Assembly: GCA_032718865.1 (NCBI GenBank)
Contig: JALUTQ010000001.1
Span: 1,860,001 to 1,924,000 of the forward strand
DNA length: 64,000 nucleotides
Direction of reading: 5' to 3'
Origin: Tilletia caries
Taxonomy: Eukaryota > Basidiomycota > Exobasidiomycetes > Tilletiales > Tilletiaceae
Positions 4,001 through 20,263 of the stretch are shown here, in pieces. Under the pieces are notes generated by a model that was not told where the DNA came from, did not search any database, and saw only the letters and a program-made list of their open reading frames with translations. Within the stretch, counting starts at the first letter, position 1. The number at the start of each line of letters is the position of its first letter. Made by a program: the position numbers and the translations under genes.

Positions 4001-4959
4001 CTGGCGGGCAGAGGAGAGTGTGGGGCGAGGTTGAAGGCGCCGAGTCGGAGGGGCGGCGCCAAGTTCCGAGCCTGCTTTGTAGGGTCGAATGCCTCGGTAA
4101 AAAGGGTGAGCACGTATGTCTGCATATAGTAAGAACGACAGAAACCCAATGTACTCACGCTCGACAACGCCCTCCCAAAGCGCATCCTGCTCTGTCCTTC
4201 TCAGATTCACGACGCGCCGGGTCGTTCCCCAGCGCACAGACAATGGAGACGCGTCAGATGACGGGCAGAGCACGATGGAGCAAGGGCACACTCACCTGGA
4301 TGGTATGCTTTGGTTGTTGTGGTCAGGATATCGCCCCACTCCGCGAACCCGTTCTCGCCGTTCTTCTCGCGCGTCTTCTCCTCAGGCGCGACGCGTTCCA
4401 GCACAAAGAAAAATAGCCGGTGATAACTGGTGAGCAAGGGAACGTGACGCGTCGAATTTGCACTGAAAAACTCACTATGCCTCGCCGATGAGCTGCATGT
4501 CTCCGGACTCGATACCGTTGTGGACCACCTGCAAAGGCGAAAAGAAAGAGGATGTCAGCATGAACTCCCATGTGTGCATACATGCGCATACAAAGCATCA
4601 CAAAACTCACAGTCTGATTGGCGGTCTCAAGGCTTTAAGTGCACGCCTGCAAACTCGTGAGCTGGTTGTTGATCGACTGGTTGAAGAAGACTGGCGGTGG
4701 GGTGCTTGAGGAGGAGGATGCCAATGTGTGGATTCGACCGATGTGAGCTCAGGGGAGCGTGCATGTGATGACTTGTAGAAGGACTGTGTCGAGGTGATGG
4801 GGAGCGTGATTGGATGAATAATGCGATGGACTGGGGCGGCGGGAGAAGAGGTGAGCGCGGGCGAGTGAGTGAGAGAGTGAGTGGCTAGTGGCTTTCGGGT
4901 CGCTCGAGCTGATCCTTAGCTGGCTTGAGCTCATCCAGCATCTGAGATCACCATCACCA
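4001..4959. other. exon-like scraps on the minus strand, gene unidentified
   Basis: Minus-strand pieces with plausible splice signals occur around 4610-4480 (reads VVHNGIESGDMQLIGEA after a TTTGCAG acceptor) and 4437-4290 (reads FVLERVAPEEKTREKNG, then GFAEWGDILTTTTKAYHP before a GTGAG donor). A frame upstream (about 4710-4610) has an in-frame TAA. I cannot assign a family. They look like parts of one small gene that has decayed. The repeat array begins at 4960. Confidence 0.3.
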
Positions 4960-7900
4960 GGTAGAATTCGTATGGTGACGGCTGGGACCGAGATGATCAT
5001 GATCAAAGTAAAGACGCCCTATACGCCGGTCACCACCGCTTGGTCAACAAAGCAGCACATCACCATGATTGGATAGCAAAGGAAGTGGTTACCAAGCTGG
5101 GACCAGCTGACAAGCTGATGGTTCCTTTCCTATCCGCCGCCGCAGAAATTTAAGGAGGATAGTTGAGCAAGCTCTCTGCTGTAGCTGACGGCCAATAGGA
5201 CACTGTAATAGGTGAATACTCTCCCTCACTCCCTCCAACTGTCCGTCCTCTCCACGACTACTGATCAAACACCTTTCTTTCAACAGCTTCGCAATCCACA
5301 TCTCTTCTCTGCCCTTCCTGTGCTGTGCGCGTGTCGCGAATCGGCGTCTGACGGCCGACAGTGCGTGTGTTTGGACCATACATGGTGAGTAAGCGTCCTA
5401 ACCGTGGCTCAGAAATCTTTCAATGTCACTGATTCTGCTTCCCCTATTTCTCTACCTCGAACAGGTCTGCATGCTCGGCTCTCAGGCGCCCAACGTCCTC
5501 AGACTCGTTCTCGTTCGTGAGTGAGCAGAAGTTGTGGTTTTTGGCCGCATGTAGTCTGTTGTCTGATGTGTCGGCACTGATCAATTCCACACCACTTCCT
5601 CCCGTCTAAACAGTGCGCACACAACGATATCGAAGCTTCAACGTTCAGGGAAATTTTTCTATTCAGAGTGCGGATGCTATGAGTGATGACAGACTGATGT
5701 CCTTACTTTTTTGAGGTTGAGCCATTGAGCAGATTGCATACGTTGTACGCAATATGGTCGACGTTGCCCACGTCCCACACGCGGTACACTCGCACACTCG
5801 CATGGCACTATTGGTGAATGACGGCTCATTTTCTTCCAGATCACAGCATAGCACCATACATGATCCTTTTGCGCGCCGTCTGCATCTGCTACGCTGGCTT
5901 CGGCTGACTGCTTTTCTGATCCTGTTCCCTGCTGATGTCTCCAAATTCCACTTCCGATGTCTTATTCTCTCTCGATGTCTTATTCCCTCAGGGCTTACCA
6001 AGCTCAATCAGGATTCAGGACGCCTACCTAAAGGTAGAATTCGTATGGTGACGGCTGGGACCGAGATGATCATGATCAAAGTAAAGACGCCCTATACGCC
6101 GGTCACCACCGCTTGGTCAACAAAGCAGCACATCACCATGATTGGATAGCAAAGGAAGTGGTTACCAAGCTGGGACCAGCTGACAAGCTGATGGTTCCTT
6201 TCCTATCCGCCGCCGCAGAAATTTAAGGAGGATAGTTGAGCAAGCTCTCTGCTGTAGCTGACGGCCAATAGGACACTGTAATAGGTGAATACTCTCCCTC
6301 ACTCCCTCCAACTGTCCGTCCTCTCCACGACTACTGATCAAACACCTTTCTTTCAACAGCTTCGCAATCCACATCTCTTCTCTGCCCTTCCTGTGCTGTG
6401 CGCGTGTCGCGAATCGGCGTCTGACGGCCGACAGTGCGTGTGTTTGGACCATACATGGTGAGTAAGCGTCCTAACCGTGGCTCAGAAATCTTTCAATGTC
6501 ACTGATTCTGCTTCCCCTATTTCTCTACCTCGAACAGGTCTGCATGCTCGGCTCTCAGGCGCCCAACGTCCTCAGACTCGTTCTCGTTCGTGAGTGAGCA
6601 GAAGTTGTGGTTTTTGGCCGCATGTAGTCTGTTGTCTGATGTGTCGGCACTGATCAATTCCACACCACTTCCTCCCGTCTAAACAGTGCGCACACAACGA
6701 TATCGAAGCTTCAACGTTCAGGGAAATTTTCTATTCAGAGTGCGGATGCTATGAGTGATGACAGACTGATGTCCTTACTTTTTTGAGGTTGAGCCATTGA
6801 GCAGATTGCATACGTTGTACGCAATATGGTCGACGTTGCCCACGTCCCACACGCGGTACACTCGCACACTCGCATGGCACTATTGGTGAATGACGGCTCA
6901 TTTTCTTCCAGATCACAGCATAGCACCATACATGATCCTTTTGCGCGCCGTCTGCATCTGCTACGCTGGCTTCGGCTGACTGCTTTTCTGATCCTGTTCC
7001 CTGCTGATGTCTCCAAATTCCACTTCCGATGTCTTATTCTCTCTCGATGTCTTATTCCCTCAGGGCTTACCAAGCTCAATCAGGATTCAGGACGCCTACC
7101 TAAAGGTAGAATTCGTATGGTGACGGCTGGGACCGAGATGATCATGATCAAAGTAAAGACGCCCTATACGCCGGTCACCACCGCTTGGTCAACAAAGCAG
7201 CACATCACCATGATTGGATAGCAAAGGAAGTGGTTACCAAGCTGGGACCAGCTGACAAGCTGATGGTTCCTTTCCTATCCGCCGCCGCAGAAATTTAAGG
7301 AGGATAGTTGAGCAAGCTCTCTGCTGTAGCTGACGGCCAATAGGACACTGTAATAGGTGAATACTCTCCCTCACTCCCTCCAACTGTCCGTCCTCTCCAC
7401 GACTACTGATCAAACACCTTTCTTTCAACAGCTTCGCAATCCACATCTCTTCTCTGCCCTTCCTGTGCTGTGCGCGTGTCGCGAATCGGCGTCTGACGGC
7501 CGACAGTGCGTGTGTTTGGACCATACATGGTGAGTAAGCGTCCTAACCGTGGCTCAGAAATCTTTCAATGTCACTGATTCTGCTTCCCCTATTTCTCTAC
7601 CTCGAACAGGTCTGCATGCTCGGCTCTCAGGCGCCCAACGTCCTCAGACTCGTTCTCGTTCGTGAGTGAGCAGAAGTTGTGGTTTTTGGCCGCATGTAGT
7701 CTGTTGTCTGATGTGTCGGCACTGATCAATTCCACACCACTTCCTCCCGTCTAAACAGTGCGCACACAACGATATCGAAGCTTCAACGTTCAGGGAAATT
7801 TTCTATTCAGAGTGCGGATGCTATGAGTGATGACAGACTGATGTCCTTACTTTTTTGAGGTTGAGCCATTGAGCAGATTGCATACGTTGTACGCAATATG

Positions 7901-9249
7901 GTCGACGTTGCCCACGTCCCACACGCGGTACACTCGCACACTCGCATGGCACTATTGGTGAATGACGGCTCATTTTCTTCCAGATCACAGCATAGCACCA
8001 TACATGATCCTTTTGCGCGCCGTCTGCATCTGCTACGCTGGCTTCGGCTGACTGCTTTTCTGATCCTGTTCCCTGCTGATGTCTCCAAATTCCACTTCCG
8101 ATGTCTTATTCTCTCTCGATGTCTTATTCCCTCAGGGCTTACCAAGCTCAATCAGGATTCAGGACGCCTACCTAAAGGTAGAATTCGTATGGTGACGGCT
8201 GGGACCGAGATGATCATGATCAAAGTAAAGACGCCCTATACGCCGGTCACCACCGCTTGGTCAACAAAGCAGCACATCACCATGATTGGATAGCAAAGGA
8301 AGTGGTTACCAAGCTGGGACCAGCTGACAAGCTGATGGTTCCTTTCCTATCCGCCGCCGCAGAAATTTAAGGAGGATAGTTGAGCAAGCTCTCTGCTGTA
8401 GCTGACGGCCAATAGGACACTGTAATAGGTGAATACTCTCCCTCACTCCCTCCAACTGTCCGTCCTCTCCACGACTACTGATCAAACACCTTTCTTTCAA
8501 CAGCTTCGCAATCCACATCTCTTCTCTGCCCTTCCTGTGCTGTGCGCGTGTCGCGAATCGGCGTCTGACGGCCGACAGTGCGTGTGTTTGGACCATACAT
8601 GGTGAGTAAGCGTCCTAACCGTGGCTCAGAAATCTTTCAATGTCACTGATTCTGCTTCCCCTATTTCTCTACCTCGAACAGGTCTGCATGCTCGGCTCTC
8701 AGGCGCCCAACGTCCTCAGACTCGTTCTCGTTCGTGAGTGAGCAGAAGTTGTGGTTTTTGGCCGCATGTAGTCTGTTGTCTGATGTGTCGGCACTGATCA
8801 ATTCCACACCACTTCCTCCCGTCTAAACAGTGCGCACACAACGATATCGAAGCTTCAACGTTCAGGGAAATTTTTCTATTCAGAGTGCGGATGCTATGAG
8901 TGATGACAGACTGATGTCCTTACTTTTTTGAGGTTGAGCCATTGAGCAGATTGCATACGTTGTACGCAATATGGTCGACGTTGCCCACGTCCCACACGCG
9001 GTACACTCGCACACTCGCATGGCACTATTGGTGAATGACGGCTCATTTTCTTCCAGATCACAGCATAGCACCATACATGATCCTTTTGCGCGCCGTCTGC
9101 ATCTGCTACGCTGGCTTCGGCTGACTGCTTTTCTGATCCTGTTCCCTGCTGATGTCTCCAAATTCCACTTCCGATGTCTTATTCTCTCTCGATGTCTTAT
9201 TCCCTCAGGGCTTACCAAGCTCAATCAGGATTCAGGACGCCTACCTAAA
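4960..9249 (+). repeat. four-copy tandem array of a 1,072/1,073-bp unit
   Basis: Four head-to-tail units start at 4960, 6033, 7105 and 8177, each beginning GGTAGAATTCGTATGGTGAC and ending CTACCTAAA. By eye they are identical except for a T run: AAATTTTTCT in copies 1 and 4, AAATTTTCT in copies 2 and 3. Each unit carries, on the plus strand, three intron-like spans: GTGAATACTC to TTTCAACAG, GTGAGTAAGCG to CGAACAG, and GTGAGTGAGC to TCTAAACAG (in copy 1 about 5212-5287, 5381-5465 and 5520-5613). Frames between them are short and unrecognised. The array could be a multiplied transcription unit or gene relic. The near identity points to recent amplification or homogenisation. Confidence 0.9.
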
Positions 9250-9637
9250 GGCCTACGACAGTCGACACGCGCGAATCTCGATGCTGGATTTGAGAGGATG
9301 GGAGGACGGGAAGAAGAGGATGTGGTTGCCTCCTTCTTCCAGCATTGTTGACCATCGTCTCCCACCATCCTCACTTCATCTCTACTCTCTGGCACTCTGC
9401 AGGCCAGGGGCGATGATAGCTCAAAGGGAAGTCATGCATTTGGACTTGCGAGCTGATTTAACATCCGGCATCCCTATCCTTCCCATTAGCCCGCAGCTAG
9501 ACCTATACATGGCGTCGAGTCGATCGATTACAATTTACATGCGAGAAAGAGCGGGCGATCGTAGAAGAGAGAAGGTGAAGAGAGATGGAGATCAAGATTC
9601 AGAACAAAAGCAAGTGAGCAACTGCTTGATGTTGGAG
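9250..9637. other. no supported gene
   Basis: Unique sequence between the tandem array and the 3' end of the Crypton gene. It may contain the right boundary of the Crypton, but Cryptons lack terminal inverted repeats, so I cannot mark it. Confidence 0.4.
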
Positions 9638-12600
9638 CTACGGCAACCATGTACGAAGCCGTCCCATGATCACATCCCGAGCTGACGTCGCGTCTTGTTG
9701 ATGTCGCCCGTGGTCGACGTCGGCGCGCTTGCGTTTGAAGCCAGATGTCTTCGAGAGCCAGTCGGAGAGACCTCTCGCGCTGTAGCCGCCGTAGCACGCC
9801 TCAAAGAATCTGAGCGCGTGTTCTTGCTTCCACGCCGGGCGAGACCGAGTGATCTCCTCGATCAATTCGATAACCTTTCGCCGACGACTCCACTCCTGCT
9901 TCATGCCCGGCGCAGATCTCCACACCGTCCCCCACATCTCCTCCATGCACCGCGTTCCGAACTTCCCATTCACGCCTATGCTGTACTCCACCCACACGTC
10001 TCGCACCGAAGGACTTGGACGAAATTGGTACGAGGGGAAGACCGTGTCCCTGTTGACGTCGTATTGCCATGGCTCGTTCGCATCCATTTTCTGCTTTCCC
10101 CATCGCTCCTCCTCCTTCAACTTCAACTCCTGAATCCTCTCCTGCTGTGCGCCTGAGATGGCAGTGCCGCTAGAGGACTGAGGAGCCGGAGCTGAGGGTG
10201 GAGAGGCGCTGGAGATGGCAGCGATGGAGGAGGCCGAGGCCGTTATGAAGTCGGCCAGGAGAGCGACAGACTGAGGGCTGAAGCAGGACTGGTCGAAGAT
10301 GGTCGGGTGGATCGGCCCGGGTGGGGAAATGGGAGGGGTTGGACCGGTGATGGCGGGTGCGGCGTTGCGCAGGACGGTTCCGGGGGGGAAGAAGGAGCCG
10401 AAATCGAAGACGGCAAGGGAGGAGAAGAGAGCTGCGGAGCCGAAGAAGGAGAAAGGAGCTGCTGAGGAGCATCATTGAGGTTTGTTGCGTGCCCAGACGG
10501 GTGCCGAGAGGAAAGGTGCGAAGAGTTGCTGCTGCTGGTGGTGGTTGAGATCGAGGAACACAATGCCGAGGCGCGGGAGCTGCTTGCTGTACCGCTGCTG
10601 CTGAGGGTGCCGCTGCTGAAGGAAGACGGCGCACGTGCAGCTGACGCGCTGCTCACATCCTTGGAGTTGGAGGTGCCGACACCGGCCGAAAGGGAGAGAC
10701 TCTGGTTGGAAACCGAAAGGAGAGGACGAGCAGCAGAAGCGGTGATGGTGGAGAGAGGGGGGCAGGCTGCTGATGATATCGTGCATCACTCGGGAGGTTT
10801 TGAAAGACAAGAAGCTGCAGACAAAGGTCGAGCTTTTGATTCAACGCCATGTCCCTGCGCTCAAAACCGGTCTTGATATCAGCGAGCGCCAGCTTGACCC
10901 CGGCTCCGAGCTGCTGTGGAAGTTGCGAGAACTGCCTCTCTGCCTCCGAGTCCTCCGCCTTGACTGCTGTGTTGAGAGCTGCTGCAAACGCGTGAAACTG
11001 CGGACTGGAGAAGGTCGGACACGCTGCGAAGGGCTTGAAGGTCGACCAAGCAGGATGCTGGCTGAGAATCGCCGCATCCTGAAGCAGCACCTCTCGGAAC
11101 CATTCGAGACAATCCAAGAAGGCAGAGAGAGCAAAGTCGGACGCATTTTCATTGGCCGTCCGTCGCTCCTTGAGCTTCTCTCGCTCGTCTTCGATCCACG
11201 GAAAGAGCTGGGAGAGGAGGACGTCGGGAGGCTCCAAAGTGGAGAGATGGAGAGGAGAAGAGCAACGATCAGCAACCTAGAACTGTGCAGTTGACGAGCG
11301 TGAAGGAATGGAGAGCGGGATCTTACTTGTGTGGGCCCTGGCAACATAGTACGAGTCCAGGTCCTGTCCATTGAATCCAGCGACCGCCCAAATCGCATCA
11401 AGGGGGAACGAACGATCGTAGCAGGACCGGAACGCTCCACCGTCGGACCACCCTCCGAGCGCCTTCGTTCCAGAAACACTGGCCCCGTTCTCGCGAGCGT
11501 GCATGGCTCCCGCGGTACGCCCTGCGTGTGTGGTCTTGCCCACATCAACATTGTTGAGGCGAAACATCGTTCGCACCGCGCCGTCATGAGCTGATGAATT
11601 GGGGAGAAGGAAACGTTCGTCAAATTGAGAAACACCATAACAGCAGCATGTGTGCGTGCGTGTCGCCCTCCCAACCCTCATCCCAAACAGTTTTCCAACC
11701 ATCAACAATGGAGCTCCTACCAACCAAACCTCAACCCCAATCGGCAATCCACAACCATCTCTATTCTCTCCCGGCTCCAGCAGAACTACTCACTCTTGTA
11801 GCTCATCTCTTTGCTTGATGCAGAATGTCGTCCACGGAAGACAACCCAACCCCACCATTCCCTGTAACCGTACTTGCCGTGGGTCTTTCTCTTGAAGTCG
11901 GGCGCAAAGGTAGGTCGCCCTCGGCTTCCAAGTTGCATCGACCACAGCGCCTGCATCGCCAGCGCGCCGACAGGACAGCGAAGAGGGTCTTTGTGCCGCG
12001 CCGCGGCAAACTCGTCCAAGCGACCCTGTTGATTCGTCTTGCTGTTGTCGGCGCGAAGTGCTAGAAGCTGAATTAGTCCATTAGTGATGAGAGAGTGTGG
12101 AAGAGTGTTAGATCAGTACAAGTAGAGGCAGAACACACCACACCACACCAGGATGCGCTTGCCTTTATTGGATTCGCATCGCCACGGGAAGGAACAGTTG
12201 CATGATGGACGAACAAATCGGACCACTCCAGTTGGCGAAGAGAGTTTCCTCGAAACGCAGTTGCCAAGGATAGCAAAAGCATAGACCGATCTCGTACCGC
12301 GGTGCCCAACTTGGCTGGTGTACGACCTTGTCCCAGCGCCCACTCACTCAACTTCAAGACCTCTTCTTTTCTAAGCGTAGCTGCACATCAAGTATCAACG
12401 GTGAGGTTAGCTGTTCTGCGGTCTTCTGACAAGGGAATAGGCCACAGGAGAGAGTAGGTTGACTTGGTACTCACCAGAGGAAGACCCGAGGGCCTTTTGC
12501 TCTTGCCCTGCGCCCGCTCTGTTGTGTTTGTCGTTCTTGGAGGTAGTCTCCAGCGAGTTGATGGTCGCATTGTCACGGAGCTTTGTCCGTGTAGCAGTAA

Positions 12601-13349
12601 AGTCGGGATGCTCTCGCCAATCGTCCTCATTGACCTTTCGAAACCATTCCAACGCGTTGATACGCTGCTTGATGGCCGAGTACCCCAACTGAGTTCCTGC
12701 AATCGTCTTCTTTGCCTCAGAGCTCGATCCAGCTCCTCGACCGCTGACATACTAGAAAGATGGACTGCAGACAAATGAAGAGGCTGTCAGCGTGTGAGCG
12801 TGTCCAAAACTCCGAAACCACAGGCCACAGGGATTGTAGAGCCGAACGCATTGAGACCATCACGCTCGAAGACCATTCACGCTCGACAACCTCGTGGTAC
12901 CACATTACCACCGCCCTTGCCCCTTCCCTTCGCATCCAGCCTTGACCATGACGGACGAAAGTATGATCCAATGATGAATGAACTGCTGCTCGTTGTCCAC
13001 ATCTTCTAGGACTCTGGTGGAGTGGTGGGCACTGGGAGAAACAAAGTCAAGGGCTACTCACATGCTCGCGCTTCATTGTCATATCGATGAAGAGCGCAGC
13101 TTTGGACGCGGTGATGGGGTAGGGCTCTATGGGCGGCTGTCGGTCGTTGCAGTACTTCTCGTACTCCGCCAGGTAGCTGTCGTAGTCGCTTTGTGTTTTG
13201 TCCAGATGGGTCGCGCATAGCCGTTTTTCGAAGTGCTGCTGCTTCTTCCAGCACCTCAGCGCTCGTCAGCGCTGCCAAGGCAACGCTTGCAGCGCCATCC
13301 ATGGAGCGCTCGACCTCCAACGCTGCAGGCAAAGGCAAGACGGTCATGC
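9638..13349 (-). mobile_element. Crypton: tyrosine recombinase with GCR1_C-like C-terminus
   Basis: Minus-strand, multi-exon Crypton/Ndc10-like recombinase, which moves DNA by circular intermediates without a DDE transposase. Readable exons are 13349-13062 (SYLAEYEKYCNDRQPPIE), 12751-12475 (LGYSAIKQRINALEWFR), from 12380 (RDRSMLLLSLATAFRGNSLR, first catalytic Arg), about 12063-11830 (HKDPLRCPVGALAM), about 11596-11325 (THAGRTAGAMHAREN, the HxxR motif; GGWSDGG; CYDRSFPLDAIWA with the likely Tyr nucleophile), about 11237-10800 (LLSQLFPWIEDEREKLKE), a Ser/Pro-rich linker, and 10126-9638 (YQFRPSPSVRDVWVEYS, a GCR1_C/Myb-like DNA-binding end). The N-terminal exon needs a one-base frame change near 13200 (NTKR to YDSYLAEY), so this copy may be inactive. 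Limits of the element itself are unknown. Confidence 0.8.
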
Positions 13350-14050
13350 TGACAGCCCTGTGGCCCTGTGGAGAATGGACATCGCGGGCTTGAAAGAGAG
13401 AAGGATGGTGGATGGAAGCTGTAAGCGCGACTCTCTTCACGCGACGCGTTGTGCGACACTTTGTAATCAGTTTGTATGCATTACGCTCCACTGTAATGGC
13501 CAACTTGCCCGGTGCGACGCATGCACGGGACCACTGCTGGTGGACAGTGGAAACGGGACCTTCCGTGAAGTCCCGCTCGGATCATCTCGGCGTCCCGCCC
13601 TCGTCACCACCTTTTGCCAGATTTTATTATATACACTAGAGAGAGGAAAGGGGGGGATGAAACTCGCTTCCACGGGCTTCCATGGTATTCGATGTCTGTG
13701 CGTTGGTGACCAGTGTGCATTACGTCATGGCTGCAGCCACGAAGCTAATAAGAAGCCCCATCCCACCACCTGCAGGCTGCACCCGCTCTCTCTTCCCCTT
13801 TCGGCTCTTCGCCCTCTTGTCGACTGATAGTTTGTTTTTGCCACGTGACTGTCTGTCGAACAAACTCTTCGGCGTTAACATCCGTCCCTCGCTGAAAGTT
13901 CAAGGTGAGTGTTTTTCATGTTTTTCGTTTTCTATTTGTATTTCTGTCTTTTTGGGTATTGTTTTCTACCGTTTTTTGTTCTGTAGTCCATTCTTTTTCA
14001 GTTTTTTTTTTCGTTTTCTTTTATGTTTTTTTCTTCTTTTCTCCTTATCA
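13350..14050. other. no supported gene; possible left flank of the Fanzor element
   Basis: This contains a T-rich stretch (about 13,910-14,060) and otherwise unique sequence. It shares short words (CTGCACCC followed by a pyrimidine run and TCGGC) with the DNA just after the Fanzor hairpin at 19,590-19,610, which could mark element ends. The match is too short to rely on. Confidence 0.25.
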
Positions 14051-14068
14051 TTATTAGATTAAAAGACC

Positions 14069-14200
14069 AACCACGTGACTAGCAGAGTCCAACCACGTGA
14101 CTAGCAGAGTCCAACCACGTGACCAGCACCGCTCCTTTTTTTCTATTCTTCCGTTATTATTATTAGATTAAGAGACGGACCACGTGACCAGCACCGCTCC
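14069..14200 (+). repeat. CACGTG-containing 22-bp direct repeats upstream of the Fanzor gene
   Basis: Three consecutive units beginning CCACGTGACTAGCAGAGTCC at 14071, 14093 and 14115 have a 22-bp period. A fourth CCACGTGACCAGCACCGCTCC follows at 14180. CACGTG is the palindromic E-box bound by bHLH factors. The position 300-430 bp upstream of the Fanzor ATG fits a promoter array, but that role is inferred. Confidence 0.6.
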
Positions 14201-14205
14201 TTTTT

Positions 14206-14406
14206 TCATTCTTTTTCTTTTTCTTTTTCTTTTTCTTTTTCTTTTTCTTTTTCTTTTTCTTTTTCTTTTTCTTTTTCTTTTTCTTTTTCTTTTTCTTTTT
14301 CTTTTTCTTTTTCTTTTTCTTTTTCTTTTTCTTTTTCTTTTTCTTTTTCTTTTTCTTTTCTTTTTCTTTTTCTTTTTCTTTTTCTTTTCTTTTTCTTTTT
14401 CTTTTC
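14206..14406 (+). repeat. (CTTTTT)n hexanucleotide microsatellite
   Basis: About 33 units of CTTTTT with two shortened units near 14,357 and 14,392, ending 90 bp before the Fanzor start. Long K-rich and F-rich frames across it are artefacts of the repeat. Confidence 0.95.
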
Positions 14407-14495
14407 CATCTTTTTTTCTGGGTCATCATCGTTAGATCAAGAGACTGACCAGCACCGCTTTTATTTTTTCCCTTATCTATTATATACAGATCACC

Positions 14496-15695
14496 ATGGC
14501 CGACCCTCCGCCAGCGCCCTGGATTGGGTCAGTAGCACCAGAATCGGTGCTGTGGCCTGGCGTAGAAGGCACACAACAGGCGGCGGAGTGGCATAATGCG
14601 CCCATCGATACTTGGTTTCTACCAAAATACGCCCACCTGCCGCATCCAGTCGTGCCGGATGAAGATATCGGCGGAATGCTCACGGAGCTGAGCGCTACAC
14701 TTCGGCAGCGCCTCGACGCTGTGCCTCCACCACCGCCGTCTCGTAGGACCAGGCCTGGAGAGCGCCCAGACAATTCGCGCTTGAAGACCTATCGCACCCG
14801 GCTTCGGCCGAATACACAGCAAAAAGAGGCACTTCGAAAAACGGCTGGAATATTCAGGTGGACGTACAACCGGGCGGTGGCGTACCTCAAGGCTCATCCA
14901 AACGCCTCTTTAAACGACGTCCGGGAACATTCAGTCACAGAGGATGGCCTTCCCCTCATGAACCTGTCATGGGTGACTCCGGTGCCATACAGCATCAGGG
15001 AGCAGGCGTGCCTTGAGGCCCGTACAGCGCTTCAGAATGGCTTGGCGGCCGTTCGGGACGGCAAAATTCCGAACTTCGAGCTGAAGTTCCGGAAAAAGCG
15101 GGCGCTCTTCTCCTCGTTCCGGATTCGGACCCGTGACTGGGTTGGAGGATGCCTCAAGATCCCAAATTTCGGTCTGGGTCCAGGTCAGCACCAGACCAAG
15201 ATTCGGACGGGGATCGACGTTCCATCGCTGGAGCATGATGGGGCATGCATCAAGCAGGAGAACGGGTCATGGTTCCTGCTTTGGCAGAAGGACATGGGGG
15301 AAGAGAAGATGCGGGTTCCTGCAGCACGTGGGCCACAAATGTGTGCCATTGACCCCGGCGTTCGGACATTTGCCACGATTTACGACCCTTTGCGGGGAAC
15401 GGCGGCAAAATTTGGCGATGGAGAACACAAGCGTCTTTTCCGCCTCGGTACGCACTTGGATGACTTGATCTCGCGATCAACCCAAGCTAAAGCAAAAAAG
15501 CGTTACCGAATGCGCCGCGCCGCAAATCGACTGCGTGCAAGAATCCGGCATCTTGTCGACAAGCTCCATTGGAAGCTGCGTGGCTACCTCAAGCGAAATT
15601 TCGACACTGTGCTGCTGCCAACATTCAACGCGCACCAGATGTCTCGGCGAGGTCAAAGGCGGATCGGGCGCAAGACAGTCAGAGCCATGATGACG
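14496..15695 (+). pseudogene. Fanzor (eukaryotic TnpB-like RNA-guided nuclease), N-terminal part, gene split by an LTR element
   Basis: The frame starts at an ATG in good context (ATCACCATGG) and gives 400 residues before the insertion. After a Pro-rich leader (about 1-90) comes the TnpB fold: LKTYRTRLRPNTQQKEALRK, then GIFRWTYNRAVAYL, the typical N-terminal signature of OrfB/TnpB. LKFRKKRALFSSF and the RuvC-I motif CAIDPGVRTFATIY follow, with the catalytic Asp at residue 286. RuvC-II reads TVLLPTF. The canonical Glu is missing there, as known for Fanzors with a relocated Glu. The frame runs into the left LTR after AVRAMMT and stops 7 codons later. The remaining 74 residues lie at 19233-19457. 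Family knowledge: these proteins cut DNA using an RNA made next to their own gene. Confidence 0.85.
15691..15695. repeat. left target-site duplication of the LTR element
   Basis: TGACG, repeated at 19228-19232. Removing one copy and the element restores the Fanzor frame. Confidence 0.85.
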
Positions 15696-15977
15696 TATAT
15701 TAGCGAGCCTTTGTAGGGAGCCAGTAGAGGGAGCCTGTAGAACCGTAATGTGCAAGATGCAGAGAATGAAGAGTGAATATATGACAAGGGAGAGAACTAA
15801 GTACAATGATGAGCTCGAGAAGGGTAACGATGAGAGCGAGGGAAAAGTGTGACGTGGGAAAAGTGGAGGTAGGGTGTTGCTATGCAAAGGTGCATGAGAA
15901 GAAAGGGAGAGAGAGAGATAAGGGGAGAGAGATAAGATAATGGACCCACGTGTGTAACCACGTGGCCGTCCAGCACA
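15696..15977 (-). repeat. LTR, left copy (3' LTR in the element's own orientation)
   Basis: 282 bp, starting TATATTAGCGAGCC on the plus strand and ending GTCCAGCACA. It differs from the right copy at TATATTAG/TATACTAG and at one A/G in the GA-rich part. Confidence 0.9.
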
Positions 15978-16484
15978 TCCCCACTCAGAAAAAGACGACT
16001 GTCCCGAGTCGTGATCAAGACTGGGAACTGCAGCGGGCATGGCCGCATAGGGGAAGGGAAGCGAGTGACCATGCGCGCGTGGAATGAGAGCGGTGCCGGA
16101 ACGGAGAGTGAAGTGAAGCTGTGCGAAGCGAAAGCAAGAGTGGTATGAATGTATGATGGGACCATGGCAGAGATGTGAAGAGTGGATGTGTCGGAGAGAG
16201 CCGTGAAGAACCGGGCAGCAGGACAACGGATGAGGGAGAAGGAGCCGTCGAAGAGTGGCGTACGCGGGTAAGGGCGCTGATATCGCCGGTGCGGAAGTCG
16301 CGATCGTGAAAGCCGAAGACGTGCGTGGCACAGCCGCTGTTGTTGCCTGCGGTGTACCGTGTAGCTGCACGAAGACGGAAGAATAGGCGTTCTCGGAGAC
16401 GATGCGGCAGTATCGGTCGACAAGGAGGCCGCGACAACAAGAGCCCGAGCCTGGAGCCATGCGTCGCGTGCGCGAAATAAGGCC

Positions 16485-16492
16485 GTGGACGC
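16485..16492. repeat. left target-site duplication of MITE 2
   Basis: GTGGACGC, identical to 17513-17520. Confidence 0.88.
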
Positions 16493-17512
16493 TAAGGCTG
16501 GCATGCGGAGTAAATGTACGGAGTTTTACTCCGCACTGGCGGAGTAACTCACTTTTTGGCAAAGTGCGGAGTACTCCGCAGTTGCTTTCAGCGAAATGAG
16601 GTAAAGTGCGGAGTACTCCGTCACTCCGCAGATTTTTGCTGGCTCCTCCGCGGTTACTCCCTACTCCGCAGTGGCGGAGTAAAATTTTTGGCAAGGCCAC
16701 TCCGCACTCCGCAAAAAAAGTCTCATTTTGCTGCGGAGTACTCCGCAACGAAGAATTTATTTGCGGAGTGAATTTTTACTCCGCAAGTGCGGAGTTTTGC
16801 GGAGTGGAATTCAGAAACTATGAACATATGGAAGAAGAAGCTCTAGTCACTGCTCCCCGTCCTCCTGTGGCGTCACCTTCCGCTTCTTGCGCGCCCGGTC
16901 CGCTTCAAGCTTGCGCTTGCGCTTCTTTTTTTCACCTTGGCCGCCTCCTTGACCTCTTGCTCGCGCTCCAGAATGTCCGTCAGCAGTGTTGTGGGAACCC
17001 AGTCGTCTAGGAACCATTGGCCAACAGCAACGACCTTGGCGAGTTTGCGTGCCCTCATGCTGTGCCTGAGGGAGGTCACGTTGCGCCCAGCGCGAGAGAA
17101 GGGGCATATCACGTGAGACTATTGTTTGCCCGTGAGAAAGTGATGCGCGCTGTGGAGGCCACAAAAGTCAAAACGGGAAAAAATGAAATTCCAAAAGTGC
17201 GGAGTAAGCGGAGTACTCCGCATTTTTGGCGGTCCGAACAACTTTACTCCCTACTCCGCACTGGTGGAGGAACATTCCGGCGAGCTTCCTCCGTCCTCCG
17301 CACAATTTTGGGGAATTTGAAGCGGAGTACTCCGCAGATTTTGGTGAACTTCCCCAAGTTATGCGGAGTACTCCGCGGAGTTTTTGGCCCCTCCGCAGTC
17401 ACTCCGTACTTTTTGCGGAGTGCTGTGCGGAGTAAAAATGCGGAGTAAAACATAAAAAATTGCGGAGTACTCCGCAAAAGTGTAAAATGAGTTACTCCGC
17501 ATGCCAGCCTTA
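16493..17512. mobile_element. hAT-type MITE, copy 2, nested in the LTR element
   Basis: A 1,020-bp element with 21-bp perfect terminal inverted repeats (left starts TAAGGCTGGCATGCGGAG, right ends CTCCGCATGCCAGCCTTA). It is flanked by the 8-bp target duplication GTGGACGC at 16485-16492 and 17513-17520. The interior is filled with GCGGAGTA/TACTCCGC motifs in both orientations and also holds about 300 bp of unique sequence (16,830-17,190). The first five bases TAAGG and the GGAGT inside the repeat are shared with MITE 1, so both may be mobilised by related hAT transposases. No transposase is encoded. Confidence 0.88.
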
Positions 17513-17520
17513 GTGGACGC
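17513..17520. repeat. right target-site duplication of MITE 2
   Basis: GTGGACGC, identical to 16485-16492. Confidence 0.88.
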
Positions 17521-18640
17521 CGAATCACAGCCGACGGTGATGTTCGTCACCAAATGTCGTGCGTCCGCCCAAGCGACACGCGTTCGAACCGTTGCCAGCT
17601 CGGCCGATACTGAGCCACCGCCCACCACGACTCCACACGTTTCCGCCCAGATTCGTCTTTGCCACGCTCCGGAGCCGTCGCCTGTCTCCAGTCTCCCCAC
17701 TCCTGTTGAGACACGGTGAGAGTCGGTGCGCGGTGTTGGCGAGCGGCAAGCCCAGTACCGAAGTGGGTCCCGAGGTCGCGGCAGGCGGCTCGGGAGGCAC
17801 TTTGTTGGGGACGTCTGGATGGGACGGCAGGCAGAGGATTCCGGTGCTGCTGAGCTGGTTCGAACTATGGCGTCGTCCAGCAGAGTGTATCAGCTCGGAC
17901 CTCTCTTGCCGGTTGATTCCTGTGGCAGCACAGTCCATCTCGTATCGTCGGTACACGACGGTCACGTCGCGCCGTTCACCGGTGGGATGCTGGGACGCAG
18001 AGGTGGGTGTGCGCGGAGCCAACGGTGGCGGCAGAGATGCCGAAGGTGGTTGAGATCCCGATGTCGGTACCGAAGTGGTGCATGAGGAGAAAGCCGGTCC
18101 TTGCGCGCGCTGCTGATGGCCTGTCGCGGTGAAAAAAGGTATGTTCCGGGAGCTTTTCGCTGTAACAGGGAGGCGAAGCGCGTAACGGTTGTGGAAAGGA
18201 GAGAACCATCGAGCCACGAAGCCTAGAGTAGCCAGGAGAAGGTAAGGCTGCGTCGAAATGCCGTCGAATGCGAACCAACACCAGGCCAGCAGCAGGAAGC
18301 ACCGACTGTGGCGATCATACAGAGCGGTGTGACGGCCGACGGCGATGACGGATGGATTGAGGATGCCAATCGAAAACATGGGCGAGACTCGAGAGAGGGG
18401 GGGCCGGCAGTGCCAAAGAGCAGAAGTCTAGACCGCCTTGCACGCCCCGTGTCGGAGATGATCGCTGGAAAAGGGATAGTCGGAAGTATGCGAGGAATAT
18501 GTGTGGGGGTGCCGCCGCCCGTGCCTGCCGATGGGGATGATCTTGATGTCTTGAGCCTGGTAAAGTGGTAAGGCGGAGGAGAAGAGAGAGGGAGAGAAGA
18601 GAGGGGGTAGTAGAGAGAGAAGTAGTGCGAAGGAAACAGT

Positions 18641-18784
18641 CGGGAACGCGCGAGGGTCGACAGAGGCTCGGCGTTGGCGACAGAGAAGAAGTCGGGAATG
18701 TGCGAGGGTCAATAGAGGCTCGGCGTTGGCGACAGAGAAGAAGTCGGGAACGCGCGAGGGTCAATAGAGACTCGGCGTTGGCGA
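18641..18784. repeat. 52-bp tandem repeat in the LTR element leader
   Basis: Nearly three units with a 52-bp period. The common core CTCGGCGTTGGCGACAG recurs at about 18,667, 18,719 and 18,771. In the element's own (minus) orientation it lies just inside the 5' LTR, in the leader. Confidence 0.7.
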
Positions 18785-18945
18785 CGGTGAGAACAGAGGG
18801 CCGAAGCAGAGACCTGGGGCGGTCTGGGATGCCGGAGCCGGGGCTGGAGCAAAGGGTGTCTCGACGAGGGAACTGGGGGTTGTGTCGTCGTGGGCTGCTG
18901 AGGATCGTCGGGTCGATGGTCAGCAAGAGAATCCTCTCATCACCA

Positions 18946-19227
18946 TATACTAGCGAGCCTTTGTAGGGAGCCAGTAGAGGGAGCCTGTAGAACCGTAATG
19001 TGCAAGATGCAGAGAATGAAGAGTGAATATATGACAAGGGAGAGAACTAAGTACAATGATGAGCTCGAGAAGGGTAACGATGAGAGCGAGGGAAAAGTGT
19101 GACGTGGGAAAAGTGGAGGTAGGGTGTTGCTATGCAAAGGTGCATGAGAAGAAAGGGAGAGAAAGAGATAAGGGGAGAGAGATAAGATAATGGACCCACG
19201 TGTGTAACCACGTGGCCGTCCAGCACA
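18946..19227 (-). repeat. LTR, right copy (5' LTR in the element's own orientation)
   Basis: 282 bp, from TATACTAGCGAGCC to GTCCAGCACA on the plus strand, followed by the TGACG duplication. Confidence 0.9.
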
Positions 19228-19232
19228 TGACG
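19228..19232. repeat. right target-site duplication of the LTR element
   Basis: TGACG, identical to 15691-15695. Confidence 0.85.
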
Positions 19233-19457
19233 TGGGCGCACGGTCGCTTCCGAAGCCGATTAAATGAAGCTATGGAGGTCGTCGAGGTGGTGGAGGACTG
19301 GACATCCAAGGTCTGCTCAACGTGCGGCACGGTCAATCACAGACTTGGAGGCAGCGAAATCCACCGCTGCCCCGGATGTCTCACAGTCTCGGATCGAGAC
19401 GTCAATGGCGCGAAAAACATTCTCCTCCACTGGAAATATGATTTTCTCAACCAGTGA
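19233..19457 (+). pseudogene. Fanzor C-terminal part (RuvC-III and zinc finger) after the LTR insertion
   Basis: 75 codons including the stop, in exact frame with the part ending at 15695 once the LTR element and one TGACG are removed. Numbered on the joined 474-residue protein it has glutamates at 415, 418 and 421 (VVEVVEDW; one is a candidate for the relocated RuvC-II Glu), a zinc finger with Cys 428/431 and 446/449 (VCSTCG, HRCPGC), and the RuvC-III motif DRDVNGAKN with Asp 456. No stop or frameshift is seen in either half, so the gene seems to have been intact when the LTR element landed. As it stands the two halves cannot make one protein unless the 3.5-kb insert is spliced out, and I see no evidence for that. 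Confidence 0.85.
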
Positions 19458-19650
19458 CAGCGACATATTCTCCTTTTCTTTTTCCTTTTCCTCCACATTT
19501 TTCTTTTCTCTTTCTTTTTTTGCTTTCTTTTACCCTTTTTGCCTTTTCTTTTCGGAAAAATGCCGCCGATCACACGTGATCGGCGTTTGGGAGCTGCACC
19601 CCTTTGGCTTCGGCCATTGCACTAGTCTGTATATAGTACAGGCTTGAAAT
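19455..19650 (+). ncRNA. candidate Fanzor guide-RNA / element-end region
   Basis: Directly after the Fanzor stop comes a pyrimidine-rich tract, then two hairpins. One has a perfect 10-bp stem CGCCGATCAC / GTGATCGGCG with a 2-nt centre (19564-19585). A smaller one is CTGTA-TATAG-TACAG (19627-19641). In TnpB and Fanzor systems the guide (omega) RNA overlaps or follows the 3' end of the nuclease gene and the element end supplies its structure. The location fits. The function is inferred and the boundary is not defined. Confidence 0.3.
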
Positions 19651-20263
19651 GCAGCGCTTGTCTCTGACTTTTTCTCACATCACCTCCAACCTCTTCCTTC
19701 TTCTTCCTTCCTTCAATCACATCTGCGCAGACAAGCAAAGACGCAAGCAACGCACGCTCCACGCTCGATCACAACATCCACCTTGGCCTCTGACGATCTC
19801 GACGTTCATCGCGCGGCACTGACAGCACAATCGGCCACGAGGTCCTCCGCTTCCAATCGACAGCAGTCCCAGCTTCGAGCCGCGTGCCAGGCTGCGAGAA
19901 GTGGTCGGCCAGGCTCGCCGTCGATCAAACCAACACAGAAAGGTTCGCTCCTTTAGTCTCTGGAGCCCGGAGCTGTAGCAGCCACGCGGAAGGCGGAGGA
20001 GGACAGCATCCATAGTTCCATACATCCCACGCTTGAACGCCGGGAGGTATTCGCGCACAGCATCCAAGACAGCAGACAGTCAAGGGTATGTTCCGCTTCT
20101 CTACTCTATGCTCTGCTTTTTTTCTTCGCTCGCTCACTGACTTCTGCAACATGCGCAACCTTAATTGGTCTCAATCACCACCAGACGCTCGGTTCCCCTT
20201 TTCCCCTTTCCTCTTCTTCTCGTCTCTCTTCTCCTTCTTGCCCTTCTTCTCATCCAGTAACTC
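19651..20263 (+). promoter_or_regulatory. promoter and 5' leader of the bZIP gene, with a likely leader intron
   Basis: This lacks coding sequence. A GTATGTTCCG donor at 20086 and pyrimidine-rich acceptors CACCACCAG (about 20,184) or TTCTCATCCAG (about 20,257) suggest an intron in the 5' untranslated region, ending a few bases before the ATG in the second case. The spacing from the Fanzor element is about 0.6 kb. Confidence 0.45.

What the first reader, a model, noticed from the sequence alone, without database searches (positions are those of the whole stretch)
14496..19457. Fanzor nuclease gene split by a fresh LTR element that itself carries a hAT MITE
Seen: a TnpB-like frame (RuvC-I Asp 286) stops at an LTR. 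A 3,532-bp element with 282-bp LTRs and a TGACG duplication follows. The frame then resumes with RuvC-III (DRDVNGAKN) and a four-Cys zinc finger, in exact phase. Inside the LTR element lies a 1,020-bp MITE with TSD GTGGACGC. Known: Fanzors are eukaryotic TnpB relatives, RNA-guided DNA nucleases carried by mobile DNA. Inferred: order of events Fanzor, then LTR, then MITE, all recent (two LTR differences seen). The uninterrupted allele, if present elsewhere in the genome or in sister strains, would encode a complete 474-residue protein.
Basis: partly seen in the sequence, partly recalled or inferred. Interest (0 to 1): 0.9.

Follow-up and report, generated by a model that had tools for sequence, protein, structure and literature searches.

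The report
Fanzor gene broken by nested transposons
In a wheat-bunt fungus, one of about twenty copies of a gene resembling RNA-guided DNA-cutting enzymes has been split by a jumping element that itself contains another, while the stretch thought to make its guide RNA is untouched.

Summary
By its nearest proteins the genome is a wheat-bunt Tilletia. ORF 14496-15713 and its continuation 19233-19457 are two parts of one Fanzor2-type gene. A 3,532-bp LTR element (15696-19227; 282-bp LTRs, 2 differences; TSD TGACG) separates them and holds a 1,020-bp hAT-type MITE. In 18 of 19 other copies fetched from the same genome the two parts are contiguous with a single TGACG; 5 of 19 keep a full-length ORF. 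Corrections: the LTR element lies on the minus strand and looks non-autonomous; LTR-then-MITE order is unproved. Additions: the Fanzor element spans 4791-19656 and carries a second, 8.7-kb Crypton-like insertion. Its 3' end is exact and holds a nearly invariant 97-nt module with a pseudoknot that a second family keeps by one compensatory change: the probable guide-RNA scaffold, intact here although the protein is broken. Across copies the 3' end is exact with unrelated flanks, while 5' ends are ragged and share nested host flank: a one-ended signature, reported before for Fanzor1 in algal Helitrons. No serine recombinase matched. Nuclease activity, RNA expression and mobility are untested.

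The parts
4791..4960 (+). 5' core of the Fanzor element, cut off from the rest by a Crypton-like insertion
   Evidence: 95% match to the element 5' region of copy L012
4961..13633 (-). 8,673-bp Crypton-like insertion in the Fanzor element: four tandem 1,072-bp units at 4959-9251, then minus-strand ORFs with GCR1_C and NDC10_II domains; direct repeat CACCAG/CACTAG at its ends
   Evidence: the site is uninterrupted in copy L012
13634..15695 (+). Fanzor element, second piece: 5' leader region and first 400 codons
14496..15713 (+). ORF of the first part of the Fanzor2-type nuclease (400 residues plus 6 read from the LTR, then stop); HTH_OrfB_IS605, RuvC-I DPG at residue 286
15691..15695 (.). target-site duplication TGACG, left copy
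15696..19227 (-). LTR element, apparently non-autonomous; on the minus strand LTR TGTGCTGG...TATA, PBS-like TGGTGATGAGAGG next to 18946, purine tract GAGTGGGGA next to 15977
   Evidence: no Pfam domain in four interior ORFs
15696..15977 (-). LTR (3' LTR of the minus-strand element)
16493..17512 (.). hAT-type MITE, TIR TAAGGCTGGCATGCGGAGTAA, 8-bp TSD GTGGACGC
18946..19227 (-). LTR (5' LTR of the minus-strand element)
19228..19232 (.). target-site duplication TGACG, right copy
19233..19457 (+). last part of the Fanzor gene: alternative RuvC-II Glu (codon 19293), C4 zinc finger, RuvC-III DRD, stop
19559..19656 (+). putative omegaRNA (reRNA) scaffold at the element's right end: hairpins plus pseudoknot of loop 19593-19598 with 3' end 19650-19655; a guide would begin just after
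   Evidence: 2 mismatches in 1,067 aligned nt over 11 copies; fold z -3.49; pair counts
19655..19656 (+). right end of the Fanzor element (GCAGC followed by G)

Best explanation
This is one copy of a multi-copy Fanzor2-type element in a wheat-bunt Tilletia. The protein gene was broken when a young, apparently non-autonomous LTR element, which carries a hAT-type MITE, inserted between codon 400 and the last 74 codons. The truncated product would keep the N-terminal part and RuvC-I but lack the alternative RuvC-II Glu, RuvC-III Asp and zinc finger, so it should be unable to cut DNA. The right-end guide-RNA-like module is intact and lies outside the insertion. If transcribed, it could guide the nuclease made by full-length paralogs (a 'ghost' guide locus). 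Shown by sequence: family, interruption, paralogous empty sites, intact 3' module, ragged 5' and exact 3' ends. Inferred: guide-RNA function, loss of cutting, action in trans, mobilisation in trans by a one-ended mechanism.
For: The halves match neighbouring parts of one TnpB profile. 18 of 19 other copies are contiguous across the site with one TGACG. DPG, the alternative Glu six residues before the zinc finger, and the C4-RD pattern occur in 5 of 5 full-length paralogs. The best solved relative, by profile and by fold of a homologue, is mimivirus Fanzor2 9b0l. The 97-nt module differs at 0.19% of aligned bases against 4.25% in the 5' coding part and folds better than 200 shuffles; the pseudoknot is kept in a second family with one compensatory change. 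dN/dS is 0.29-0.70 in all 15 pairs among the five full-length copies and the window's first half.
Against: No RNA or activity data. The pseudoknot's compensatory change comes from one divergent sequence among 5 distinct rows; in the same count one of five measures (further pair types) was reached by 105 of 500 shuffles, and that family's 3' stretch did not fold better than shuffles (z -0.85, 43 of 200 as good). Conservation of the 3' end could reflect transposase recognition rather than RNA. No Rfam match. After the insertion the 3' module is cut off from the gene's own promoter, so it may be silent (inference). The modelled homologue (58% identical) is only moderately confident (pLDDT 77.6, pTM 0.57), and the TM-scores to 9b0l are low (0.44 and 0.45).
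Confidence: 0.85

Rival explanations
1. The conserved 97-nt 3' end is only the recognition end of a transposase acting in trans (Helitron-like hairpin end), with no RNA function; the window copy is simply a dead transposon.
For: Sharp right end in the 18 copies where it was located; subterminal hairpin; 60 Helitron_like_N matches in the genome, some of them pieces of one gene.
Against: The last 6 nt can pair with a hairpin loop, and a second Fanzor family keeps this with one compensatory change, as described for TnpB/Fanzor2 reRNAs (PMC10711439, section 26 read). The 32-nt end was found at 16 places, 15 at Fanzor copies and one (C5:897797) at a place with both element ends but no Fanzor coding match; none at a Helitron_like_N match.
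Confidence: 0.25
2. The interrupted gene still yields whole protein because the LTR element is removed from the mRNA like an intron.
For: The coding frame before and after the element belongs to one protein.
Against: Paralogs explain this without splicing. The element's ends TATATT...CAGCACA are not splice sites (seen directly), and the ORF stops 6 codons into the LTR.
Confidence: 0.03
3. The ragged 5' ends and shared 5' flanks result from ordinary segmental duplication and later rearrangement, not from one-ended transposition.
For: L013 and L020 share 691 bp of right flank, so duplications do occur; win and L017 share left-flank pieces of 2,345 and 539 bp; three of nine copies show 5-6-base strings common to both junctions (L014, L003, C5c).
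Against: The right break is at the same base in all 18 right ends located, with 17 different right flanks, while left breaks fall at many points. Random duplications would not stop at one base. One copy, L018, has lost the last bases and L008 and L010 have no located right end.
Confidence: 0.25

Closest known systems
Acanthamoeba polyphaga mimivirus Fanzor2 (TnpB-like protein L79, PDB 9b0l)
   Same: Best match of the family profile to any solved chain (2.8e-54, profile 27-470) and best Foldseek match of the modelled relative (3.3e-19, though TM only 0.44); same RuvC and zinc-finger layout
   Different: Here fungal, in many copies per genome, and in a genome without a detected serine recombinase
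Fanzor2* elements (Fanzor2 captured by non-IS607 transposons; PMC10711439, abstract and passages seen, section 26)
   Same: DPG plus alternative Glu, reRNA pseudoknot, about 475 aa, no IS607 TnpA found
   Different: Those described have TIRs and TSDs of cut-and-paste transposons; neither was seen here
Chlamydomonas CRe-1,2,3 Fanzor1-carrying Helitron2 elements with one-ended transposition (PMC3627910, abstract and passages seen)
   Same: Intact 3' ends, ragged 5' ends, extra sequence beyond the usual 5' end in some copies
   Different: Fanzor1 there, Fanzor2-type here; TSDs common there, none convincing here in 9 copies; Helitron end sequences not recognised here
Non-autonomous LTR elements (TRIM/LARD type; term recalled)
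   Same: Two LTRs, 5-bp TSD, PBS-like and purine-tract-like sites, about 2.5 kb without the MITE, no Pfam domain in four interior ORFs
   Different: LTR ends TG...TA rather than TG...CA; much of the interior has no second copy in the genome

Membership tests
Fanzor/TnpB superfamily | TnpB-type profile over the protein (HTH_OrfB_IS605, TNB zinc-finger domain) | tested here: met
   PF12323 1.2e-10 (first half), PF07282 1.2e-13 (second half), guided_TnpB 3.8e-14 and 6.2e-12. PF01385 and all NCBIfam hits stay below the curated cut-off; each half was searched alone
Fanzor (DPG plus alternative Glu fingerprint, PMC10711439) | RuvC1 motif DPG and glutamate six residues before the zinc finger, none at the canonical place | tested here: met
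   DPG at 286, Glu 421 with Cys 428, VLLP around the canonical site, in 5 of 5 full-length paralogs; the window halves show DPG at 286 and EDWTSKVC
Fanzor (D-X(125,275)-[TS][TS]XX-C4-X(5,50)-RD, PMC3627910) | C-terminal motif | tested here: met
   Matched in 5 of 5 full-length paralogs
Fanzor2 rather than Fanzor1 | Closer to Fanzor2 in sequence, fold and size; reRNA with pseudoknot | tested here: met
   9b0l best by profile and fold; Fanzor1 entries 9ceu (2.5e-4) and 9cer (1.4e-2) far weaker by fold and not among the 23 profile matches; 473-474 aa; pseudoknot. No phylogeny was built
RNA-guided nuclease | Cuts DNA with an RNA from the right end | not testable with these tools
   No expression or biochemical data
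IS607 element (usual home of Fanzor2) | Serine recombinase TnpA (PF00239) | tested here: not met
   0 matches at E 0.001 in the whole own genome; the control rings in 10 of 14 genomes
Helitron | 5'-TC and CTRR-3' ends, insertion between A and T, 3' hairpin, RepHel | tested here: inconclusive
   3' hairpin present; canonical ends and A/T target not seen; RepHel-type matches elsewhere in the genome, but the 32-nt right end was found at none of them
LTR element | Two near-identical LTRs, 5-bp TSD, PBS and purine tract, dispersed relatives | tested here: met
   single LTRs with 5-bp TSDs in L031, L033, L035
hAT-type MITE | TIRs and 8-bp TSD in independent copies | tested here: met
   8-bp TSD in 10 of 12 loci examined, the window's among them; for the other 2 (L061, L062) the script found no pair of termini
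Crypton | Tyrosine recombinase with NDC10-type and GCR1_C domains, short direct repeats at ends | tested here: inconclusive
   GCR1_C 9.3e-11, NDC10_II 4.7e-11, direct repeat CACCAG/CACTAG; catalytic residues not checked; the family's definition is recalled

The most novel reading that the evidence does not exclude
A Fanzor2 nuclease is carried by an element that moves by a one-ended process starting at its guide-RNA end and dragging variable lengths of host 5' flank with it, without serine recombinase, TIRs or TSDs; protein-dead copies such as this one persist as guide-RNA donors for the intact paralogs.
Probability: 0.3. Interest if true: 0.7.

Novelty: new variant of a known kind. Interest (0 to 1): 0.45.

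Why it matters
Fanzors are the eukaryotic relatives of CRISPR nucleases, and their natural role and way of moving are open questions. A fungal genome with about twenty similar copies, an exact 3' end with a conserved RNA-like module, ragged 5' ends and both full-length and broken copies makes two questions testable with existing sequence data: whether the guide-RNA end is also the end at which mobility starts, and whether copies with dead proteins still supply guides. The nested insertion itself is ordinary transposon turnover.

Tried and rejected
Retroposition as the source of ragged 5' ends: the 234-bp gap in the left flank of L004/L014 against the window was looked at for intron borders and reads as a plain deletion. 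TSDs at the ragged ends: none convincing in 9 copies; the longest strings shared by both junctions are 6 bases (L003) and 5 bases (L014, C5c). Insertion into a shared repeat as the reason for shared left flanks: rejected because right flanks differ. Proteasome-type gene (recognised by eye) as cargo of the element: it lies beyond the left core in L003 and L012, and a homologous locus without the element is at C32:924780-925700; neither copy's right flank continues that locus. IS607 mobilisation: no PF00239 match. A third Fanzor family (L096) was too degenerate to locate its right end. An autonomous partner was not found. An empty MITE site in related LTR elements was not found, since interiors differ. 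The interior of the place at C5:897796-907143 could not be fetched. Alleles in sister strains could not be examined: P0002 from T. caries is 99.3% identical over 297 residues but sits on a 1-kb contig. Print: 'Fanzor'+'Tilletia' 0 papers, 'Fanzor'+'Basidiomycota' 0, 'Fanzor'+'Helitron'+'one-ended' 1, the 2013 paper. Supplements and subscription papers were not searched, so species tables may well list Tilletia Fanzors.
Full report
What was checked. The window is G000:C1:1860001-1924000 of a 38.1-Mb, 40-contig assembly. The nearest database proteins are from Tilletia: T. laevis 91%, T. caries 99% over 74% of the query, T. indica 58%; copy L008 is 99.0% identical to the T. laevis protein P0001. 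I infer a wheat-bunt Tilletia; the species was not resolved.

The gene. The halves were searched apart. First half: HTH_OrfB_IS605 1.2e-10 and OrfB_IS605 7.9e-05 (below its cut-off); second half: Cas12f1-like_TNB 1.2e-13. NCBIfam guided_TnpB covers profile positions 1-318 and 316-387 of 389 in the two halves, each below the whole-protein cut-off of 100 bits. The fingerprint that PMC10711439 gives for Fanzors (DPG in RuvC-I; glutamate six residues before the zinc finger instead of the canonical place; passages seen) is present in 5 of 5 full-length paralogs, and the window halves show the same residues. A profile of 15 relatives found mimivirus Fanzor2 9b0l first among solved chains (2.8e-54); the Fanzor1 entries 9ceu and 9cer are not among its 23 matches. 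An AlphaFold model of the T. indica relative P0003 (pLDDT 77.6, pTM 0.57) matches 9b0l best (3.3e-19, TM 0.44/0.45), while 9ceu gives 2.5e-4. No tree was built; the Fanzor2 assignment rests on these comparisons.

Empty sites. The own-genome search listed 48 matches; 20 were fetched as loci, the window's among them. In 18 of the 19 other copies the sequence left of the LTR element and the sequence right of it are contiguous, overlapping by exactly the 5-bp duplication; L015 does not reach the site, and L010 ends 49 bases beyond it. Five of 19 have a full-length ORF: L002, L003, L004, L006 (473-474 residues) and L007 (547, reading on beyond the usual end). Pairwise dN/dS among these five and the window's first half is 0.29-0.70 in all 15 pairs, which suggests constraint rather than free decay.

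The insert. The LTR element is on the minus strand: read that way the LTR begins TGTGCTGG and ends TATA, a PBS-like TGG sequence follows one LTR and a purine tract precedes the other, and both recur beside related LTRs. The first look found 239 candidates and scored 40, so the 42 listed LTR matches are a lower bound. Pairs of related LTRs span about 2.4-2.6 kb end to end (positions), close to the 2,504 bp of the window element without MITE and its duplication. Four interior ORFs have no Pfam match. The interior at about 17513-18390 has no second copy, so the MITE could have been there before the element moved; LTR-then-MITE is likely but unproved. The MITE family has perfect 8-bp duplications in 10 of 12 loci examined, the window's among them; in the other 2 no pair of termini was found.

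True extent of the Fanzor element. Its right end is at 19655/19656: 18 right ends were located, all ending ...GCAGC, followed by G in 15 and A in 3. The script's own tally prints 14 and 4 because its cut for L017 lay one base too far; the printed sequence shows G. Misses: L018 has lost the last bases, and L008 and L010 have no located right end. The left core starts at 4791 in the window and is separated from 13634 by an 8,673-bp Crypton-like insertion with four tandem 1,072-bp units and GCR1_C and NDC10_II domains. The window copy thus carries two independent insertions, one of them holding a third element.

The 3' module. Positions 19559-19655 differ at 2 of 1,067 aligned bases over 11 copies (those aligning over at least 90%), against 815 of 19,177 in the 5' coding part over 16 copies and 79 of 3,790 in the 3' coding part over 17. 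L009, whose middle differs, is outside that count. The RNA folds better than all 200 shuffles (z -3.04 for 119 nt; -3.49 for 98 nt). The last six bases can pair with the loop of an upstream hairpin (GCTGCA with TGCAGC). A second Fanzor family in the same genome (two loci on C34 identical for 572 bp, then diverging sharply after ATGTAGCCGG) keeps all six pairs, with one compensatory change and one wobble. That count has 5 distinct rows, only one of them divergent; four of five measures exceeded all 500 shuffles, the fifth was reached by 105. The second family's 3' stretch did not beat shuffles (z -0.85). PMC10711439 (section 26 read) reports such a pseudoknot as required in an IS607 TnpB and predicted in Fanzor2s. 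I take this module as the guide-RNA scaffold (inference). It is undamaged in the window copy, which fits the 'ghost loci' supplying guides mentioned in PMC10432273 (passage seen).

How the element may move. The 18 right flanks (220-1,060 bp examined) are unrelated except L013/L020, which share 691 bp; L009 and L020 also share a 56-bp stretch away from the junction. Twelve left junctions fall into three classes of shared flank: six share 35-39 bp or more, four share 39-47 bp (the window among them), and two share about 1.2 kb of a gene I recognise as a proteasome subunit (recalled, no call). One of the six, C22, has no located right end, and another, C5c, has no Fanzor coding match. Within classes the shared stretch grows to 100-335 bp, 539 bp, or, for window and L017, pieces of 2,345 and 539 bp. 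Four further copies start about 72 bp inside the core. No convincing target duplication appeared in 9 copies tested. No serine recombinase matched; 60 Helitron-type replicase matches did, but the 32-nt right end was found at none of them. Fanzor1 elements in Chlamydomonas Helitrons show the same asymmetry and were interpreted as one-ended transposition starting at the 3' end (PMC3627910, passages seen). A similar process acting on a Fanzor2 element is the reading I find most interesting; segmental duplication remains a rival.

Verdict. The finding is real, and its central claim is a well-supported case of ordinary nested insertion into one member of a Fanzor family. The added value lies in the family: Fanzor2-type, multi-copy, in a smut fungus, with a highly constrained guide-RNA-like right end and a one-ended mobility signature.

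Noticed in passing
window 4961-13633: Crypton-like insertion in the Fanzor element, beginning with four tandem 1,072-bp units (4959-9251, about 99.9% identical)
   Followed up: partly
G000:C5:897796-907143: Place with both ends of this Fanzor element but no Fanzor coding match; about 9 kb of unknown content
   Followed up: partly
L003 and L012 upstream (L071, L072); L075: A proteasome-subunit-like gene (recognised by eye) adjoins the element's left core in two copies; a related locus without the element exists on C32
   Followed up: partly
window 16144-18390: Interior of the LTR element largely lacks other copies in the genome while its LTRs are repeated many times; possible capture of foreign sequence
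   Followed up: partly
G000:C34:1247421, 1266061, 1270540: Second Fanzor family with its own sharp right end ...ATGTAGCC and the same pseudoknot
   Followed up: partly
L009:3649-3863: Copy whose 3' region is replaced by GCGGAG-rich sequence but which keeps the last about 34 bases of the right end exactly
   Followed up: no
own genome: 60 matches to Helitron_like_N, several in long open frames
   Followed up: no
window 14200-14410: Long CTTTTT repeat in the 5' leader of the Fanzor gene, differing in length between copies; may lie in a leader intron
   Followed up: no
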